This document shows, piece after piece, positions 10,682-17,431 of a DNA stretch of 18,598 nucleotides. The stretch covers positions 1 to 18,598 of the forward strand of contig QCAD01000011.1 in assembly GCA_003282055.1 (NCBI GenBank), read 5' to 3'. Within the stretch, counting starts at the first letter, position 1. Every line of letters starts with the position of its first letter. The translations under genes were made by a program, and so were the position numbers. Below the pieces are notes generated by a model, which saw only the letters and a list, made by a program, of their open reading frames with translations, was not told the DNA's origin and made no database searches. Origin of the DNA: Pelagibacteraceae bacterium AG-339-N18. Its GTDB lineage: Bacteria; Pseudomonadota; Alphaproteobacteria; Pelagibacterales; Pelagibacteraceae.

Positions 10682-11746
10682 CTACTTTTTCTCCATTAAC
10701 CAAAGAGCATCTGCACCTAAAAAGTAAATTTTCCCATTACTTGGATGTACTTGAATATCTCTTATTCTTCCAATTTTATCCTTAAAAATTATATCTTCCT
10801 TCACGTTTGAAGCGTCATCAAATATTAATTTTCTCAAAGACTTATCTTTTAGTGAAGTGATCAAAGCATGTCCATTCCACTCATTAAATTCTTTACCTTT
10901 GTAAATTGTTATCGCACTTGTTGCGATAGATGGTACCCAATAATGTATTGCTTTTGTAAATCCCGGTTTCCATTTAGGCCCGATTGGAATGCCTGAATAG
11001 TTTGTCCCACCCCATCCTAAAATCTTCCATCCGTAATTTTCACCTTTTTTGGCTTCACCAAACCAATCACCCCCTCGTGCTCCATGATTACTCATATAAA
11101 TTTTTCCATCAAACGGAGATAAGGTTAAACCTTGAGGATTTCTAATTCCGATTTGATAAATTTCTGGTAGCCAATCTGATTTACCTTGAAATTTTGGATT
11201 ATCTTTTGGAATACTACCATCAACATTAATTTTAATAATACTGCCAGGATGTTTAGTAGGATCTTGCGCAATCATTCCCTGACCTCTCTCTCCAGCAGAT
11301 ATAAATAGAAAATTATCTTTTATCGCAAGTCGGGATCCAAAGTGATATCCAGAGTCGATCGGTGGATTTGCTTGAAAAATATTTTTAAATAAAAGATTTT
11401 GTCTATTAAACTTAGCTTTTGCTACCGAAGTACTGGTTTTTCCATTACCTCTATTCTCTGTGTAAGAAATATATATAAAATTATCCTTAAAGAGGATGTC
11501 TAACAAACCTCCTTGACCATGTTGTAAGTAATTGAGATTATGTTTAATTTCATAAATTTTCTTTTTATTGAGATCAACAAATTTAATCTTTCCACCCTTT
11601 TCTGAAATAATTAATTTATTATTGTCAATAAAAGATGATCCCCAAGGGCCATTTAAATCGATTAATTTTTGAAATTTTAAGTTTTCAGATTGTGAAGCCG
11701 AAATATTGATAATAAAAAAAAAAATTATTTTAATTACAGTTTTCAG
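10682..11746 (-). CDS. Exported PQQ-dependent aldose sugar dehydrogenase (YliI/GSDH type), non-ATG start
   Basis: The beta-propeller signatures of the soluble PQQ sugar dehydrogenase family are clear: HGQGGLLDILF, GYHFGSRLAI (with the catalytic-type histidine), AGERGQG, QIGIRNPQGLTLSP, NHGARGGDWFGE, ENYGW and GRIRDIQVHPSNGKIYF. A start at the TTG at 11506 would cut into HGQGGLLD, so the gene must extend upstream. The frame stays open to a TGA about 30 codons beyond this and encodes a normal N-terminus (LIDLNGPWGSSFIDNNKLI). The most signal-peptide-like start is a CTG at 11746, giving MKTVIKIIFFFIINISAS and a total of 354 residues, normal for the family. No ATG, GTG or TTG lies in the available upstream window. 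It follows the mini-adenylase gene by two bases. It would oxidise an aldose in the periplasm, substrate unknown. Confidence 0.87.
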   Translation of the reverse strand: MKTVIKIIFFFIINISASQSENLKFQKLIDLNGPWGSSFIDNNKLIISEKGGKIKFVDLNKKKIYEIKHNLNYLQHGQGGLLDILFKDNFIYISYTENRGNGKTSTSVAKAKFNRQNLLFKNIFQANPPIDSGYHFGSRLAIKDNFLFISAGERGQGMIAQDPTKHPGSIIKINVDGSIPKDNPKFQGKSDWLPEIYQIGIRNPQGLTLSPFDGKIYMSNHGARGGDWFGEAKKGENYGWKILGWGGTNYSGIPIGPKWKPGFTKAIHYWVPSIATSAITIYKGKEFNEWNGHALITSLKDKSLRKLIFDDASNVKEDIIFKDKIGRIRDIQVHPSNGKIYFLGADALWLMEKK

Positions 11747-11748
11747 TT

Positions 11749-12459
11749 TTACTCCACTCTTCCTTGAATATAATATTCATTGTTATTATTTTTTTTTACT
11801 TTATCTTTGGTATTAAACCAACTATTTCCGAACACACTTATATCTCCTTTTACATGGAGTGTGTCATCTTCAAGTTTTGTATCACAATATACATTGTCTC
11901 CCATTAGAGTTCCTTCAATTGATCTTTTTTTATATTCTAAAACTTTTTCTGTATTTTTAAATGTTGTATTAATCGCACATGGACCAATTTCTGTCATACC
12001 CCAATTTACCATGAAGTTACAACCTCTTTCGACAAAATTAATTATTAAATCCCATTCCACAGGCTCACTACCACATGTCACCCAAATACCATTTAGATCT
12101 AAACTTTTGAACGCTTTAGTAAGAGATATGGCTTTGCCATGATCAGGAGTAATGTGTGTATGTGTAAAGTTTCCTATTCTTTTACAAAAATTAAAAGCAT
12201 TAAACTTTTCAATTTTTATCTTTGCTCCAACCTCAAAAGCAGGAAGTGTTTGTGCTAGTAGGCCACCCGCATGTTCCATCTTACAAATAGTATAAATTTT
12301 ACTTTTGGAAGAAATTTCTTGGCATTCTCGTGCAATTTTATTTGCACTTTTTAATTTTTCTGGTGACTGATAAATCTTTTTTTGTGGTCCAGTTGTTCCA
12401 CTAGATTTTAATTCAATTCCGTTTCTTATTATCTGAGCCAAACTGTTTTTCTGTTCCAT
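11749..12459 (-). CDS. Minimal ANL-superfamily adenylate-forming protein lacking C-terminal domain
   Basis: This is a 236-residue protein with several ANL (acyl-CoA synthetase/NRPS adenylation) core motifs. They are the phosphate-binding loop SSGTTGPQKK at 19-28, a WVTCGSEPVEW segment at 126-136, the A5 motif NWGMTEIGP at 152-160, and a WFNTKDKV segment at 214-221 corresponding to the A7 aspartate region. It ends at GRVE, where the hinge and C-terminal domain (A8-A10, including the catalytic lysine) should follow. The N-terminal third of a standard ANL enzyme is also absent. It may be a stand-alone adenylation fragment that uses a partner, a non-catalytic binding protein, or a decayed gene. 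The absence of internal stops argues for function. The 5' end overlaps the DUF6356 gene by about 47 bases. A TTG one codon upstream is an alternative start. Confidence 0.83.
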   Translation of the reverse strand: MEQKNSLAQIIRNGIELKSSGTTGPQKKIYQSPEKLKSANKIARECQEISSKSKIYTICKMEHAGGLLAQTLPAFEVGAKIKIEKFNAFNFCKRIGNFTHTHITPDHGKAISLTKAFKSLDLNGIWVTCGSEPVEWDLIINFVERGCNFMVNWGMTEIGPCAINTTFKNTEKVLEYKKRSIEGTLMGDNVYCDTKLEDDTLHVKGDISVFGNSWFNTKDKVKKNNNNEYYIQGRVE

Positions 12460-12634
12460 CAACTATTTTTTTTGCAAGTTTGTAAGGTGTGAAAACAAAG
12501 ATCCACGGAAAAATACTGTGTATTACACCAGTAATAAAAATTAAAAGAGCTAAAAAATTAAAATAGCTCGCATATAAAAAATGTTTTAACCATGAAGAAT
12601 TAATTTTCTTAAGATGTTTAAAATCTAAATCCAT
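12413..12634 (-). CDS. DUF6356-type small membrane protein
   Basis: This 73-residue protein starts at the ATG at 12634. An ATG 12 codons further upstream is possible but would overlap the SDR gene by 35 bases. The sequence MDLDFKHLKKINSSWLKHFL, then a hydrophobic helix and GVIHSIFPWIFVFTPYKLAK, resembles DUF6356, whose members have an HL...H(F) N-terminal motif and an IHxxxPxLF motif. One or two membrane segments are predicted (about 20-48). The function is unknown. It lies between the SDR gene (one base from its stop) and the mini-adenylase (overlapping its start), and so is part of a translationally coupled leftward set. Confidence 0.75.
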   Translation of the reverse strand: MDLDFKHLKKINSSWLKHFLYASYFNFLALLIFITGVIHSIFPWIFVFTPYKLAKKIVDGTEKQFGSDNKKRN

Positions 12635-12635
12635 T

Positions 12636-13346
12636 CTAAGAAAGTTTGGATCTACCACCATCGACAGCAATTATTTGACCGGTAACCCATGAGCTATCAT
12701 CGGTAATTAGAAATTTTGCAAGAGCAGCTGAGTCTTTTCCTTCACCTAATCTTTTTAAAGGATGAGCTTTCGCTATACCATCTGCCAAAGCTTTATTTTT
12801 TAACATTGGTTCTGCAATTTTTGAATTTGTTAAGCTTGGAGCAATACAGTTTACTCTTATATTTGGTGCAAACTCTGCAGCTAATGAAACTGTCAATCCC
12901 TCAACAGCCGCTTTAGTAGAAGCTATTATTGCGTGATTAGTAAATCCTCTTTGAGCAGCTACAGTTGAAAATAGAACTACTGATCCTTTATTTTTTTTTA
13001 AACTTTCTTGATAACCTTTAATGACCTCAACTGCTGAATAGAGATTTAATTTCATACATTTATCAAAATCTTCTTCTGTTACCATTCTTAAAGGTTTTAG
13101 GTCTATAGAACCTACACAGTAAGCAACACCTTTAACTTCTGTAATGTGATTTTTAACTCTTTCAATAAACCCGTTTTCTAAAACATTGGCTATTGTAAAA
13201 GTACAACCTAATTTCTCAGAAATATCCTTTGTTTCAGTTTCGCTTCTTCCGACCAAATGAATATTAAATCCCGAATTTACCATTTGTTCGGCCAAGCTAG
13301 ATCCGATTGAACCTGTCGCACCAAAAATTAGATATTTTTCTGACAT
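12636..13346 (-). CDS. SDR-family oxidoreductase lacking the catalytic tyrosine
   Basis: This 236-residue Rossmann-fold protein has a nucleotide-binding loop FGATGSIGSSLA at 8-19, NLYSA near 101-105, the serine of VVLFSTVAAQRG (S127), and the C-terminal VTGQIIAVDGGRS typical of short-chain dehydrogenases. The YxxxK active-site pattern is altered: in NHAIIASTKAAVEG the lysine is K145, but position 141 is isoleucine rather than tyrosine. A subfamily of SDR proteins with NHxxIAxxK at this point exists, so this is a family trait rather than local decay. Chemistry may be altered or absent. It diverges from the photolyase gene across only 27 bases, which suggests shared control. Confidence 0.9.
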   Translation of the reverse strand: MSEKYLIFGATGSIGSSLAEQMVNSGFNIHLVGRSETETKDISEKLGCTFTIANVLENGFIERVKNHITEVKGVAYCVGSIDLKPLRMVTEEDFDKCMKLNLYSAVEVIKGYQESLKKNKGSVVLFSTVAAQRGFTNHAIIASTKAAVEGLTVSLAAEFAPNIRVNCIAPSLTNSKIAEPMLKNKALADGIAKAHPLKRLGEGKDSAALAKFLITDDSSWVTGQIIAVDGGRSKLS

Positions 13347-13373
13347 AAAAAATTTTATTAGTTATATTTAGCT
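13347..13373. promoter_or_regulatory. Very short divergent region between SDR and photolyase genes
   Basis: Only 27 bases separate the two divergent start codons. They are almost pure A/T and include TTAGTTATA (13358-13366), a 9-base match to the core of the repeated motif at 1017 and 1095. At least one promoter must extend into coding sequence or a transcript must be almost leaderless. The call rests on geometry only. Confidence 0.35.
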
Positions 13374-14864
13374 ATGAATTTATTCTTTATACTGGGAAAC
13401 CAATTATTTCCATCAAAATACTTAGATCGCTTCAAAAAAGACCATCTATTTTTCATGGCTGAAGACTACGGATTGTGTACTTATGAAAAACATCATAAAC
13501 AAAAGATACTTCTTTTCTTATCTTCTATGCGATCACATGCAGAAAGTCTCAAAAAAGATAAATTTAAATTAGAATATATTAAAATCGAAGATAAAGAATT
13601 TAAAGATGATTATTTAAAGAAATTAAAGAGTGTTATAATTTCAAAAAAAATAAAAGAAATTTCAAGTTTTGAAGTTGAAGATAAATTTTTTGAAAAAAAA
13701 GTAAATCAATTTATTAAAAAAGAAAAACTAAAGTGGAATGTTATACAAACTCCAATGTTTTTAAATTCGAGAGAAGAATTTAAACAATATTTATCTAAAT
13801 CAAAAAAACCTTTTATGGCAACTTTTTATAAGGATGTCAGAAAAAAATCAGGAATATTAATGGGCTCAGATGGAAACCCAATAGGAGGCAAATGGAGCTT
13901 TGATGAGGAAAATAGAAATAAATTACCCAAAAATATTTCTATTCCAAGATTTCCAAAAATTAACGAAACAAACCACACAAAAAAATTAAAACCAATTATT
14001 GAAAAATTATTCAATGATCATCCTGGCACAACAGATAATTTTTGGCATGCAACAGAATATAATGATGTCATTAAGCTTTTAAATTTTTTTATTAAGGAAA
14101 AATCAAATTTATTCGGCGATTATGAGGATTCAGTTGATCAAAAGGATAATATCTTATTTCATAGTGCTTTAAGTCCTTATATAAATTTAGGCCTGATCAC
14201 GCCTGAGTTGATTATCAAAAAAGTACTCGATTTTCATAAAAGTAAAAAAATTAAATTAAATTCTTTAGAGGGTTACATACGTCAAGTAATCGGTTGGAGA
14301 GAATTTATGAGAGGAATTTACCAGAGTTACTCTAATGAAATGGAAACTGGAAATTTTTTTAAACAAAATAGAAAAATGAAAAAATCTTGGTATGATGGAA
14401 CAACTGGTTTACCACCACTAGATTATGCAATTAAAAATGCTATTGATCATGGCTGGTCTCATCACATTGAAAGGTTAATGATCTTATCCAACATCATGAA
14501 TCTATGTGAGATAAAACCAACTGTTGTTTATAAGTGGTTTATGGAGATGTTTGTAGATTCCTCTGATTGGGTAATGGTGCCAAATGTTTACGGAATGGGG
14601 CTGTTTAGTGATGGAGGAATATTTGCAACCAAACCTTATATCTGTGGATCTGCTTATTTTATGAAAATGATGGATTTTAAAAAAGGAGAGTGGTGCAACA
14701 TAATGGATGGGTTGTATTGGAGATTTATTGATCGAAATAGAAAATTTTTTTTGAAAAATCCTAGACTATCGATGATGGTTAGAATTTTTGATAAAATGAA
14801 AACTGATAGAAAAAAACTAATTCTTCCAGCTGCAGAAAAATTTATTAAACAAAATACAATTTAG
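13374..14864 (+). CDS. FeS-BCP-type photolyase/cryptochrome (PhrB/CryB class) with altered cluster site
   Basis: This 496-residue protein starts MNLFFILGNQLF, as do members of the bacterial FeS-BCP photolyase/cryptochrome clade. The clade includes Agrobacterium PhrB, which repairs 6-4 photoproducts with light and FAD. Conserved points are SYxNLGL-like SPYINLGLITPEL at 267-279, GYIRQVIGWREFMRG at 300-314, WSHHIERLMILSN at 361-373 (two adjacent histidines, expected at the repair site), VPNVYGMGLFSDGG at 402-415, KPYICGSAY at 420-428 and LYWRFIDRN at 447-455. Relatives bind a 4Fe-4S cluster with four cysteines. Here C378 and C441 match plausible ligands, C424 is shifted, and the expected YCxxC pair and following loop are missing. 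It leads the rightward cluster, and the next gene begins on the last base of its stop codon. Confidence 0.93.
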   Translation: MNLFFILGNQLFPSKYLDRFKKDHLFFMAEDYGLCTYEKHHKQKILLFLSSMRSHAESLKKDKFKLEYIKIEDKEFKDDYLKKLKSVIISKKIKEISSFEVEDKFFEKKVNQFIKKEKLKWNVIQTPMFLNSREEFKQYLSKSKKPFMATFYKDVRKKSGILMGSDGNPIGGKWSFDEENRNKLPKNISIPRFPKINETNHTKKLKPIIEKLFNDHPGTTDNFWHATEYNDVIKLLNFFIKEKSNLFGDYEDSVDQKDNILFHSALSPYINLGLITPELIIKKVLDFHKSKKIKLNSLEGYIRQVIGWREFMRGIYQSYSNEMETGNFFKQNRKMKKSWYDGTTGLPPLDYAIKNAIDHGWSHHIERLMILSNIMNLCEIKPTVVYKWFMEMFVDSSDWVMVPNVYGMGLFSDGGIFATKPYICGSAYFMKMMDFKKGEWCNIMDGLYWRFIDRNRKFFLKNPRLSMMVRIFDKMKTDRKKLILPAAEKFIKQNTI

Positions 14865-14995
14865 TGAGAAAAGCAAATCTTCCTTTTAAAATCTGTACTA
14901 TTTGTAAAAAACCTTTTACATGGAGAAAAAAATGGAAGTTAAATTGGGAAAGAGTTAAGTATTGCTCAAAGAGATGTTCTAGCAAAAAAATATGA
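14864..14995 (+). CDS. DUF2256 zinc-ribbon small protein
   Basis: This 43-residue gene starts at a GTG (14864) that shares one base with the photolyase stop (TAGTG). Its own stop overlaps the next gene as ATGA. The product reads MRKANLPFKICTICKKPFTW followed by RKKWKLNWERVKYCSKRC. It has C11xxC14 and C34xxxC38 pairs, matching DUF2256 almost end to end. It is probably a small zinc-binding protein in the cytoplasm with unknown role. DUF2256 genes are often found beside photolyases (recalled context), and the coupling here agrees. Confidence 0.92.
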   Translation: MRKANLPFKICTICKKPFTWRKKWKLNWERVKYCSKRCSSKKI

Positions 14996-15525
14996 ACTTA
15001 GAAAAATACAAATGGAAAACTAGAGTCTTACTTGTTTCTACGCCAAATTATAAGGATAGAACCTATCTAGAGGTGAAAAAAATTTATCAAGCTAAAATAA
15101 AAGATTTTCATAAAAGATATGTAAAATTAATTTGCAAAATTAATAAGAAGGAAAAATCTTCTATTAATTTAATTGGTTTTGATGGAAAATCTAAAAAGAA
15201 GATGGATAACCTTGACTACAAAGTAGCTTTTAAAATCATAGATAAAATGACACTAAGTAAAAAATTTAGACCCATAAATTTATCGCTTTATTCAGATTAC
15301 AATCCAAAAACCACTACCCAAGGTTTGGGCTTTAAAAACAGGGAAAAAGCTCTTTACACAATTAAAACTATTAAAAATCGTTCAATTAAGTATCAGGTAA
15401 ATGTCATCGCAACTATGCTAGGTAGAGCAAAGAACCATCCTAACAAAACTAGGGATATGGAGGACGCTATTAAAATATTTGGTGATTGGATGAAAAAATA
15501 TAAAAGTAAAAAAAATGAAAATTAA
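14992..15525 (+). CDS. DUF4174-like protein fused to a conserved C-terminal domain
   Basis: This 177-residue protein appears to have two modules. Residues about 6-88 resemble DUF4174: YKWKTRVLLVSTPNYKD, an FHKRYVKLI segment and NLIGFDGKSKKKMD followed by IIDKM. DUF4174 has a thioredoxin-like pattern without redox cysteines. Unlike many DUF4174 proteins it has no signal peptide, so it is probably cytoplasmic. Residues about 95-170 form a second block (INLSLYSDYNPKTTTQGLGF, YTIKTIKNRSIKYQVNVIAT, GRAKNHPNKTRDMEDAIKIF). I think this is conserved in marine alphaproteobacteria but cannot name it. It overlaps DUF2256 by four bases and the following gene by eleven, so it belongs to the photolyase cluster. 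The function is unknown. Confidence 0.82.
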   Translation: MNLEKYKWKTRVLLVSTPNYKDRTYLEVKKIYQAKIKDFHKRYVKLICKINKKEKSSINLIGFDGKSKKKMDNLDYKVAFKIIDKMTLSKKFRPINLSLYSDYNPKTTTQGLGFKNREKALYTIKTIKNRSIKYQVNVIATMLGRAKNHPNKTRDMEDAIKIFGDWMKKYKSKKNEN

Positions 15526-16957
15526 AATAAATAAATATTTAAAAAAAATAGCAGTTTTATTTTTTCTATTAATCCCAAATAGTCTATATGCTGATTTTTT
15601 TGAGGATATTACAAACCAAATTACTGATAATCCAAAAAGACTTAGTTATGGAGTTTCTGTAACGGACGTAAACCAAGATGGAAATTTTGACTTTGTAGTC
15701 ACTGGATTTGGTTATTTGAATTTAGCTTTATCATATGAGAATGGAAAATTAGTCAATATTGTTAATCAAAAAAAATTTTCTGATGAGTTTAGAAGAACTA
15801 TTGGGATCGCTGCATGCGATATTGATAAAGATGGATTTGAAGAAATATATTTTCTTAACACTGATACATATAGTGGCACAAAAAAATATTCAGATAGACT
15901 TATCGATTTAAAAAAAGATAAGTATGTAGATTTATTTGAAATTGAAAAAAATCAAAGAGATCTTAATTTAACTGCTGGTAGATCAGTTGTCTGTGTCGAT
16001 AGAAAAGGCGATGGAAATTATGGTGTTTATGTTGCTAATTATGGAGGACCAACAAGGTTTTATGAATATAGCGATGAGATAATAGTTGATAAATCTGTTC
16101 AATTGAATCTTGCAAAGGTCACTGGCGGTCGAGCTGTTGTAGCTGGACATATTATTTCTGATAAAATTGATGTGTTTGCAGCTAATGAAAGAGGAGCAAA
16201 TTTTTTATATAAAAACGATGAGGGTAAATTTTTAGACGTTGCAAACGAGTATAGAGTTGAAGATTTTCTTCAAAATGGGAGAGGAACTGCTTTGTCTGAT
16301 ATTTATTATAGAGGACGATTGGACATTTTAAATGGAAACTGGGGAGGATTTCACAGAGCCTATGTGTTAAAGGATAATATCTTTCAAGATATAGCCAAGC
16401 CACCTTTTGATGAGCCATCAAGAATAAGAACCGTTATTTCAGCTGATTTAGATAATGATGGTTATGATGAAGTCTTCATGAACAACATTGGTGAACCTAA
16501 TAAACTTTTTAAAATATTAGATAATGGTGTAATTGAGCAAATACCATTAGATGTTGGTTTAGAGCCAAATGGATATGGAACTGGAGCAGCAGTTGCTGAT
16601 ATAGATAATGACGGTGTTCTAGAGTTATTAGTTTCACACGGGGAAAGTTTTGATCAGCCATTGTCTTTGTATAAAGCAAAAGTAAATCCTCAAAATAAAT
16701 ATTTAAGAATAAAACCTTTAAATAAATACGGTGCGCCTGCAAGAGGAGCAACAGTGACATTAATTTCAAATTTAAGAAAACATTCTAAAACAATTGACTC
16801 TGGATCTGGTTATCTTTGCCAAATGGAGCCGGTGGCTCACTACGGAATTCGAGAAAATGAAAAAAATATAAAAATTCAGGTTAAGTGGACAAATGGTGAA
16901 ACCGAAACGATTTCTATCAAAAAATTAAATGAAACAATTACTTTAAATCAAAAATAA
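15515..16957 (+). CDS. Exported FG-GAP/VCBS repeat protein with C-terminal UnbV (ASPIC) domain
   Basis: This 480-residue protein has a signal peptide (residues 1-26, hydrophobic core IAVLFFLLIPNSL, likely cleavage after LYA). Several beta-propeller repeats follow, with calcium-type DxDxDG loops at DVNQDGNFD (51-59), DIDKDGFEE (102-110), DLDNDGYDE (311-319) and DIDNDGVLE (362-370). Residues about 395-478 match the UnbV/ASPIC domain (KYLRIKPLNKYGAPARGATV and IQVKWTNGETETISIKKL). This is the arrangement of CRTAC1-like proteins, surface or periplasmic proteins with presumed binding or adhesion roles. It overlaps the preceding gene by eleven bases. The convergent fasciclin gene ends directly after its stop, with no spacer. 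Confidence 0.9.
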   Translation: MKIKINKYLKKIAVLFFLLIPNSLYADFFEDITNQITDNPKRLSYGVSVTDVNQDGNFDFVVTGFGYLNLALSYENGKLVNIVNQKKFSDEFRRTIGIAACDIDKDGFEEIYFLNTDTYSGTKKYSDRLIDLKKDKYVDLFEIEKNQRDLNLTAGRSVVCVDRKGDGNYGVYVANYGGPTRFYEYSDEIIVDKSVQLNLAKVTGGRAVVAGHIISDKIDVFAANERGANFLYKNDEGKFLDVANEYRVEDFLQNGRGTALSDIYYRGRLDILNGNWGGFHRAYVLKDNIFQDIAKPPFDEPSRIRTVISADLDNDGYDEVFMNNIGEPNKLFKILDNGVIEQIPLDVGLEPNGYGTGAAVADIDNDGVLELLVSHGESFDQPLSLYKAKVNPQNKYLRIKPLNKYGAPARGATVTLISNLRKHSKTIDSGSGYLCQMEPVAHYGIRENEKNIKIQVKWTNGETETISIKKLNETITLNQK

Positions 16958-17431
16958 CTAATTTAAAGGTTGCAGAACTCTATTTATAAAATGGATTACA
17001 CCATTCGGAGCTTCAATGTCAGCCGTTACAACTTCAGCCTCATTTATATAAACAATTCCATTAACTTTTTTAATCGTTATTTCTTCACCGTTAATTGCCT
17101 TAATCTTTAATTCACCGTTTATTTCTGAAGAATTTATTTTTTTTGAAAAAACATGTCTTCCTAAGATGTTTATTAGTTTTTCTTTATTCTCTTCTCTTAA
17201 GAGGCCATAATATGTTTGCGCACTAATTGCAGAAAATGCATCGTCTAATGGTGCAAAAATTGTAAATGGTCCATCGCCCTCCAGATTTTTATCTAAACCC
17301 GACTTAGTTAGTGTTTCATTTAATTTAGTAAATTTGCCAGTCTCATTAAGTTGATTAATTATATTTGCAAATGTAATCGTTGGTACGAAAATCAATACTA
17401 GTAAACAGATAATTAAACTAATTTTTTTCAT
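16958..17431 (-). CDS. Exported fasciclin-domain protein
   Basis: This is a 157-residue protein with a signal peptide (residues 1-22, likely cleavage after ITFA), followed by one complete fasciclin (FAS1/BIgH3) domain. The H1 box PFTIFAPLDDAFSAI is at 55-69, the ILGRHVFS segment at 89-96, and the H2 box NGVIHFINRVLQP at 143-155. Such single-domain secreted proteins mediate adhesion or surface contacts in other bacteria and are probably periplasmic or surface-bound here. Its stop directly abuts that of the UnbV protein, and it diverges from the cysteine-rich gene at 17583. A shared extracellular theme with the UnbV protein is inferred from proximity only. Confidence 0.94.
   Translation of the reverse strand: MKKISLIICLLVLIFVPTITFANIINQLNETGKFTKLNETLTKSGLDKNLEGDGPFTIFAPLDDAFSAISAQTYYGLLREENKEKLINILGRHVFSKKINSSEINGELKIKAINGEEITIKKVNGIVYINEAEVVTADIEAPNGVIHFINRVLQPLN

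What the first reader, a model, noticed from the sequence alone, without database searches (positions are those of the whole stretch)
11749..15525. Divergent photolyase cluster built from atypical enzyme versions
A FeS-BCP photolyase, DUF2256 zinc ribbon and DUF4174-like fusion read rightward with overlapping codons. An SDR without its catalytic tyrosine, a DUF6356 membrane protein and a minimal ANL protein read leftward from a 27-base divergent gap. The tight coupling on both sides and the shared non-canonical features suggest a co-regulated, possibly light- or damage-linked functional unit whose accessory genes have no described role. Sequence shows the layout and missing residues. That they work as one system is inference.
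Basis: partly seen in the sequence, partly recalled or inferred. Interest (0 to 1): 0.7.

Follow-up and report, generated by a model that had tools for sequence, protein, structure and literature searches.

The report
SAR11 photolyase module with viral cassette
A marine SAR11 bacterium has a conserved light-driven DNA-repair gene pair, a photolyase and a partner protein related to an enzyme family but lacking its key residue, and beside it sits a separate two-gene cassette that ocean viruses also carry, so only part of the cluster looks like a real functional unit.

Summary
The layout is real, but it is two things superposed. Core: a prokaryotic (6-4)-type photolyase, a DUF2256 gene, and a divergent SDR lacking the catalytic Tyr. 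The divergent gap is 27-28 nt in 83 of 103 SAR11 loci. Tyr is Ile or Val in 42 of 42 family SDRs and in all 25 class genomes confirmed to hold this SDR. Of those 25, 23 also have this photolyase type, 19 side by side. The photolyase is not FeS-BCP: it lacks the cluster cysteines, like the published Fe-S-free 'subgroup M'. Cargo: DUF6356 and the 236-aa ANL protein are an overlapping pair seen in 1 of 60 family loci and 2 of 80 named SAR11 loci, always at the SDR/GSDH junction. The same pair, some copies with the same 47-nt overlap, lies on marine viral contigs, one beside terminase and neck genes. The DUF4174 protein is a stable SAR11 family, beside this photolyase in 4 of 10 family genomes with a strong match.

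The parts
13374..14864 (+). Prokaryotic (6-4)-type photolyase without Fe-S cysteines (like subgroup M / PromaPL); active-site His pair kept
   Evidence: Pfam DPRP 2.5e-63 and FAD_binding_7; PhrB and CryB among PDB matches; cluster Cys absent in 61 of 61 family rows (60 loci plus window) and 67 of 67 named SAR11 proteins
14864..14995 (+). DUF2256 protein, 43 aa, GTG start overlapping the photolyase stop
   Evidence: PF10013 2.2e-18; in the same locus in 70 of 80 named and 38 of 60 family loci
12636..13346 (-). Tyr-less SDR (Ile141 at the catalytic Tyr position; Asn101 and Lys145 kept; Thr128 at the catalytic Ser position by spacing, mapped by hand)
   Evidence: Pfam adh_short_C2 3.5e-44; alignments; PDB alignment
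13347..13373 (.). 27-nt divergent gap with an AGTTATATTTA-like element (candidate shared -10 region)
   Evidence: gap 27 or 28 nt in 83 of 103 SAR11 loci with both starts in view
12413..12634 (-). DUF6356 small membrane protein, first gene of the pair shared with viruses
   Evidence: PF19883 1.2e-07; viral copies 62-70% identical with the same 47-nt overlap in L178, L179, L182
11749..12459 (-). Minimal ANL protein, 236 aa: from the SSGTTG motif to the GR motif (A3 to A8; motif names recalled), no N-terminal part and no C-terminal lid
   Evidence: PF00501 1.6e-10; alignment A1; AlphaFold mean pLDDT 92.8, best PDB match MenE 3ipl
14992..15525 (+). DUF4174 domain (weak thioredoxin/peroxiredoxin-like fold, no CxxC) plus a conserved helical C-terminal part; accessory gene of variable place
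   Evidence: PF13778 1.4e-10; alignment A3; model and fold search; beside the photolyase in 4 of 10 family genomes with a strong match
15515..16957 (+). FG-GAP / ASPIC-UnbV repeat protein, overlaps the DUF4174 gene by 11 nt
   Evidence: PF13517 and PF07593; present in all 9 named loci that hold the DUF4174 gene
10682..11740 (-). Glucose/sorbosone dehydrogenase-like (GSDH) gene that directly follows the SDR in 12 relatives; in the window the expected start codon is CTG (upper end approximate)
   Evidence: PF07995 3e-69 for 10682-11506; empty-site comparison

Best explanation
The locus is a conserved photorepair core plus cargo of later arrival. Core: a prokaryotic (6-4)-type photolyase without an Fe-S cluster, its DUF2256 neighbour, and a divergently transcribed SDR-fold protein that has lost the catalytic Tyr. 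Photolyase and SDR share one short promoter region in SAR11 and are probably made together (inferred). The photolyase most likely repairs (6-4) photoproducts with light-excited FAD (inferred from family and the conserved His-His pair). The Tyr-less SDR most likely still binds NAD(P), does not do normal SDR chemistry, and acts as a cofactor-binding accessory in the light-stress response (inferred). Cargo: a DUF6356-ANL gene pair, also carried by marine viruses, sits exactly between the SDR stop and the GSDH start. The ANL part most likely adenylates a carboxylate and needs a partner for the second step, because it keeps the nucleotide-binding motifs but lacks the lid domain (inferred). It rides on the SDR transcript without being part of photorepair.
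For: Core: SDR within 4.5 kb (start to start) of the photolyase in 41 of 60 family loci, in several arrangements; photolyase in 78 of 80 named SDR loci. In 289 class genomes: 86 with this photolyase type (E below 1e-40), 25 with a confirmed Tyr-less SDR, 23 with both, 19 side by side; Fisher p 1.3e-11. Another class: G768 has the SDR 5 nt before a DPRP photolyase, and G450 has it overlapping a PF00875 photolyase. Divergent gap 27-28 nt in 83 of 103 SAR11 loci. Tyr replaced in 42 of 42 family rows, 80 of 80 named loci, 25 of 25 class genomes. Cargo: pair in 1 of 60 family loci and 2 of 80 named loci, always at the SDR/GSDH junction; in 12 relatives the junction is empty. Viral contigs: of 80 ANL loci kept, 23 have DUF6356 next to or overlapping the ANL (17 after merging identical ANL proteins), with a 47-nt overlap in L178, L179 and L182. 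In L225 the pair lies 35 nt before a head-tail adaptor gene and 2.8 kb before terminase. In the tree the clade with the SAR11 ANLs is sister to one with viral L177, L178, L179, L182 (97/94).
Against: 19 of 60 family loci show no clear SDR (some end early). Six of the 25 class genomes have the SDR away from the photolyase, two of them without this photolyase type; three of the six sit with CMAS, DUF3833, SnoaL or DUF6134 genes. In three of seven genomes of the phylum sample (G603, G465, G509) no match to the window's photolyase lies within the 10-12 kb fetched, only DUF2256. Outside SAR11 the SDR mostly precedes the photolyase on the same strand, so the divergent promoter is a SAR11 trait. The tree is unrooted, so direction of transfer is not shown. 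Viral nature was checked here for few contigs: L225 holds terminase and neck genes, L179 gave phage-family ATPase and HNH hits. In 46 of 80 viral loci no DUF6356 was found. No expression or enzyme data were seen.
Confidence: 0.7

Rival explanations
1. The whole stretch is one co-regulated light or damage unit.
For: Overlapping or near-overlapping genes on both arms; cassette genes look selected; both cassette copies in named SAR11 loci lie at the same place beside the photolyase; in G070 the DUF4174 gene lies 2.9 kb from another photolyase.
Against: ANL in 1 of 99 family genomes; ANL/DUF6356 in 2 of 80 named loci; the pair occurs on viral loci that hold no match to photolyase, SDR, DUF2256 or DUF4174; of 10 family genomes with a strong DUF4174 match, 4 have it beside this photolyase, 5 elsewhere, and in one (G031) it is cut by a contig end and no photolyase was found.
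Confidence: 0.1
2. The Tyr-less SDR is a working oxidoreductase with another acid/base, serving membrane or pigment protection under photo-oxidative stress rather than the photolyase itself.
For: Nucleotide-binding glycines, Asn101 and Lys145 are invariant in 22 aligned proteins; in three genomes the SDR sits with CMAS, DUF3833, SnoaL or DUF6134 genes; SDR genes of untested Tyr status are listed in the Rhodobacter singlet-oxygen RpoE regulon and in a light-responsive Pseudomonas region (PMC7074977 and PMC9758184, passages).
Against: No substrate is known; every member confirmed here lacks Tyr; strong statistical link to photolyases.
Confidence: 0.3
3. The ANL-DUF6356 pair is an old SAR11 gene pair that viruses picked up, now lost from most SAR11.
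For: The three cellular placements (window/G001, L275, L304) share one junction; cellular copies fall in one clade with metagenomic ones.
Against: Viral ANLs are far more diverse (54 distinct viral rows against 4 cellular), although that sample was drawn from viral contigs; the junction is empty in 12 of 14 loci compared.
Confidence: 0.3

Closest known systems
Prokaryotic (6-4) photolyases, subgroup M (Prochlorococcus PromaPL)
   Same: DPRP-type protein of the prokaryotic (6-4) group without the four Fe-S cysteines (PMC9178010, passages and section 13; PMC9426592, passages).
   Different: A search for Pelagibacter or SAR11 in PMC9178010's main text gave no occurrence; no SAR11 biochemistry; no tree with PromaPL was built here.
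FeS-BCP photolyases (PhrB, CryB)
   Same: Aligns over nearly full length; FeS-type class relatives are 29-35% identical where aligned.
   Different: Lacks the C350, C438 and C441 equivalents; the Trp342 and Tyr391 positions hold Tyr and Phe (mapped by hand).
Classical SDR oxidoreductases (DHRS4-like, FabG)
   Same: SDR profile, glycine motif, Asn and Lys.
   Different: Tyr replaced by Ile or Val in every confirmed member; the NAG motif (recalled) replaced by VGS.
Light-responsive phrB-SDR-FAD oxidoreductase region of Pseudomonas (LitR/LOV)
   Same: Photolyase near an SDR gene in a region whose genes the abstract reports as induced by light (PMC9758184, passages).
   Different: Whether its SDR lacks Tyr was not tested; different regulator genes.
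ANL adenylating enzymes (MenE, acyl-CoA ligases)
   Same: SSGTTG, GMTE and GR motifs and main fold; best match 3ipl, TM-score 0.77 by query length.
   Different: 236 aa; no N-terminal part and no C-terminal lid domain.

Membership tests
FeS-BCP photolyase | Four cysteines binding [4Fe-4S] | tested here: not met
   CxxC absent in 61 of 61 family rows and 67 of 67 named proteins; present in 22 of 22 FeS-type class proteins aligned, of 71 in the sample
Prokaryotic (6-4) photolyase (wider group) | DPRP and FAD_binding_7 domains, His365-His366 pair | tested here: met
Prokaryotic (6-4) photolyase (wider group) | Repair of (6-4) photoproducts | not testable with these tools
   needs an enzyme assay
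Prokaryotic (6-4) photolyase, subgroup M | Absence of the four Fe-S cysteines | tested here: met
Prokaryotic (6-4) photolyase, subgroup M | Groups with PromaPL in a tree | not tested
   PromaPL sequence was not fetched
Classical SDR | Catalytic Tyr four residues before the active-site Lys | tested here: not met
Classical SDR | SDR profile with glycine-rich nucleotide motif, Asn and Lys | tested here: met
ANL superfamily enzyme | AMP-binding fold with the nucleotide-binding motifs | tested here: met
ANL superfamily enzyme | C-terminal lid domain | tested here: not met
   protein ends at or shortly after the GR motif in the 23 aligned relatives
DUF6356-ANL pair shared with viruses | Both genes, same order, overlapping | tested here: met
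   47-nt overlap in window, L061, L275, L304 and viral L178, L179, L182

The most novel reading that the evidence does not exclude
A Tyr-less SDR is a dedicated partner of photolyases across Proteobacteria that binds NAD(P) without classical catalysis and feeds or gates the photolyase flavin; and in some SAR11 its operon has captured a virus-borne DUF6356 plus lid-less ANL pair, an undescribed adenylating module of marine T4-like viruses.
Probability: 0.2. Interest if true: 0.8.

Novelty: new variant of a known kind. Interest (0 to 1): 0.5.

Why it matters
SAR11 is among the most abundant cells in sunlit oceans (established knowledge). The result offers a testable partner protein for light-driven repair that lacks its family's catalytic residue, shows that SAR11 photolyases of this family lack the iron-sulfur ligands (possibly relevant in iron-poor water, inference), and points to a small adenylating gene pair shared with marine viruses that our few paper searches did not find described.

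Tried and rejected
Considered and rejected: the FeS-BCP label; ANL as pseudogene or truncation; invariant SDR His138 as replacement catalyst (ordinary Tyr SDRs 6y4d and 5ff9 have His there too). Named phages: no ANL or DUF6356 match among 50,697 records. SDR: no relative on viral contigs, with a query that finds close relatives only. DUF4174 protein: only weak thioredoxin-like fold matches (best E 2e-3, TM-score below 0.5). Around five DUF4174 genes away from this photolyase, one (G070, L351) has the FG-GAP gene and a PF00875 photolyase near it; I did not find a common partner in the others by eye. Paper searches: listings only, except five papers opened for passages or sections (PMC9178010, PMC9426592, PMC9649867, PMC7074977, PMC9758184); none seen describes the Tyr-less SDR or the ANL/DUF6356 pair. 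DUF6356 occurs in one held paper (listing only).

Limits: the class SDR search scored at most 9 candidates a genome at E up to 1e-25; of its 33 hit genomes 25 were confirmed Tyr-less, one (G198) has Tyr and was left out, 7 were not examined. Photolyase genomes in the class (86) were counted by hand. Of 70 family genomes with a photolyase match I fetched 60; the other 10 had partial or weak matches. The 80 named loci were found by SDR similarity and over-represent close relatives. The 80 viral loci are the best of 89 and include near-copies. In the ANL tree, 18 of the 120 listed metagenomic proteins were used. Genomes are not independent, so the Fisher p is a guide. Class-wide ANL distribution was not obtained, and DUF6356 was not searched in whole genomes.
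Full report
Layout. Leftward: SDR (12636-13346), DUF6356 (12413-12634), 236-aa ANL protein (11749-12459). The window's own genome is not held; the nearest one, G001, has the same order from GSDH to the FG-GAP gene at 93-99% protein identity.

Photolyase. It matches DPRP and FAD_binding_7 and aligns over nearly its whole length with PhrB. Mapped by hand on that alignment, His365 and His366 of PhrB are kept while C350, C438 and C441 are absent. A photolyase match was found in 70 of 99 family genomes, some of these only partial or to other photolyases; 60 were fetched, and all 60 plus the window lack the cysteines, as do 67 of 67 full-length photolyases of named SAR11 loci. In the class sample, 11 relatives at 43-64% identity lack the CxxC too, while 22 of 22 aligned ones at 29-35% (of 71 such) have it. 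PMC9178010 (section 13 read) gives seven subgroups, of which only subgroup M, with PromaPL, lacks the four cysteines; PMC9426592 (passages) says the same of Phr2/PromaPL. The window's enzyme is best called an Fe-S-free prokaryotic (6-4)-type photolyase. No tree with PromaPL was made.

SDR. In the class, 33 of 289 genomes matched at E up to 1e-25; 25 were confirmed Tyr-less with Ile or Val (22, three SAR11), one has Tyr, seven were not examined. Gly9, Gly12, Gly15, Asn101 and Lys145 are invariant in 22 aligned proteins. Link to photolyase: SDR in 41 of 60 family loci, at most 4.5 kb away start to start; photolyase in 78 of 80 named SDR loci; in the class, photolyase in 23 of 25 Tyr-less genomes against 63 of the other 264, p 1.3e-11, and 19 of the 23 have the two starts within 1.5 kb. 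Outside SAR11 these SDRs precede the photolyase on the same strand. In another class, G768 has the SDR 5 nt before a DPRP photolyase and G450 has it overlapping a PF00875 photolyase; a third genome there (G672) has a Tyr-less SDR with none within 1.5 kb, and a fourth was not resolved.

Results against the SDR link. Only 4 of 184 genomes of that other class have the SDR at E up to 1e-35 and 7 of 299 of the phylum sample at 1e-50. Of those seven, G603, G465 and G509 show DUF2256 near the SDR but no match to the window's photolyase in 10-12 kb; other photolyase types were not sought there. Six of the 25 class genomes have the SDR away from the photolyase. Three of these have CMAS, DUF3833, SnoaL or DUF6134 genes beside it, which fits photo-oxidative stress by analogy with the Rhodobacter RpoE regulon, where an SDR gene of untested type is listed (PMC7074977, passages).

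Shared promoter. Of 103 SAR11 loci in which both starts are seen, 93 are divergent neighbours; the gap is 27 nt in 68, 28 nt in 15 and 10-15 nt in 10. Most of the 39 loci printed carry an AGTTATATTTA-like element; L078 and L079 differ. This supports common control of SDR and photolyase in SAR11; transcription itself is inferred.

Cassette. Fourteen loci were compared at the SDR/GSDH junction. In 12 the SDR stop is followed within one base by the GSDH frame, with GTG in 11 and GTA in L067. L061 (G001) has DUF6356 and ANL there, as the window does, and L066 has an ABM-domain gene. Two of 80 named loci (L275, L304) carry the pair at the same junction. ANL occurs in 1 of 99 family genomes. An alignment of the ANL family found 89 relatives on IMG/VR contigs, 80 kept. 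In 23 of the 80 a DUF6356 gene lies from 4 nt before to 122 nt into the ANL gene, in 11 it is farther off, in 46 none was found. L178, L179 and L182 have the 47-nt overlap of the window. In L225 the pair lies 35 nt before a head-tail adaptor gene, followed by head closure and terminase genes. None of the 80 viral loci matches the window's photolyase, SDR, DUF2256 or DUF4174 protein. The ANL tree joins the clade holding the four cellular rows with one holding viral L177, L178, L179 and L182 (97/94); 54 of its 76 rows are viral and it is unrooted. No match was found in named phages. I infer exchange between viruses and SAR11, more likely into SAR11.

ANL structure. The predicted fold (mean pLDDT 92.8) matches the main part of MenE-type ligases. 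Motifs from SSGTTG to GR are conserved among 23 aligned proteins, of which one (P0080) lacks the first motif. The N-terminal part and the lid are missing, so a full acyl-CoA ligase cycle is unlikely without a partner; adenylation is inferred.

DUF4174 protein. 1,043 relatives; matches in 13 of 99 family genomes, 10 of them strong. Four of the ten have it beside this photolyase (G001, G098, G022, G008), five elsewhere, and in G031 it is cut by a contig end. In the named loci all 9 with it also have the FG-GAP gene; in G070 it lies near an FG-GAP gene and 2.9 kb from a PF00875 photolyase, so a light link is not excluded. Its N-terminal half resembles thioredoxin-like folds weakly.

Verdict. The core link is strong, its mechanism inferred, the cassette's origin moderately supported.

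Noticed in passing
window 11506-11740: The GSDH frame after the cassette has CTG where 11 of 12 relatives compared have GTG, and no ATG, GTG or TTG nearby. L067 has GTA there, so the change is not unique to cassette carriers.
   Followed up: partly
L066 (G036), after the SDR stop: An ABM-domain gene of about 100 aa sits at the same SDR/GSDH junction, and GSDH is shifted by about 310 nt in L257, L259, L269 and L282, so the junction may be a repeated insertion spot.
   Followed up: partly
L074, L038, L031, just after the photolyase: A 116-119 aa protein sits after the photolyase (DCC1-like PF04134 for the L074 copy), and in L074 and L038 a second, shorter photolyase-like protein follows DUF2256 (PF03441 for the L074 copy).
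   Followed up: partly
L127 (G128): The photolyase match of this genome has 12 internal stops, so it looks like a pseudogene, while the SDR beside it is open.
   Followed up: no
viral loci L179, L178, L182: The pair is flanked by two further proteins of about 180 and 255 aa; the L179 copies gave no Pfam or PHROG match.
   Followed up: partly
window 16958-17431: A fasciclin-domain gene lies close by; a fasciclin gene is listed in the Rhodobacter RpoE regulon table (PMC7074977, passage).
   Followed up: no
L351 (G070): Another DUF4174 copy lies with an FG-GAP gene and 2.9 kb from a PF00875 photolyase.
   Followed up: no
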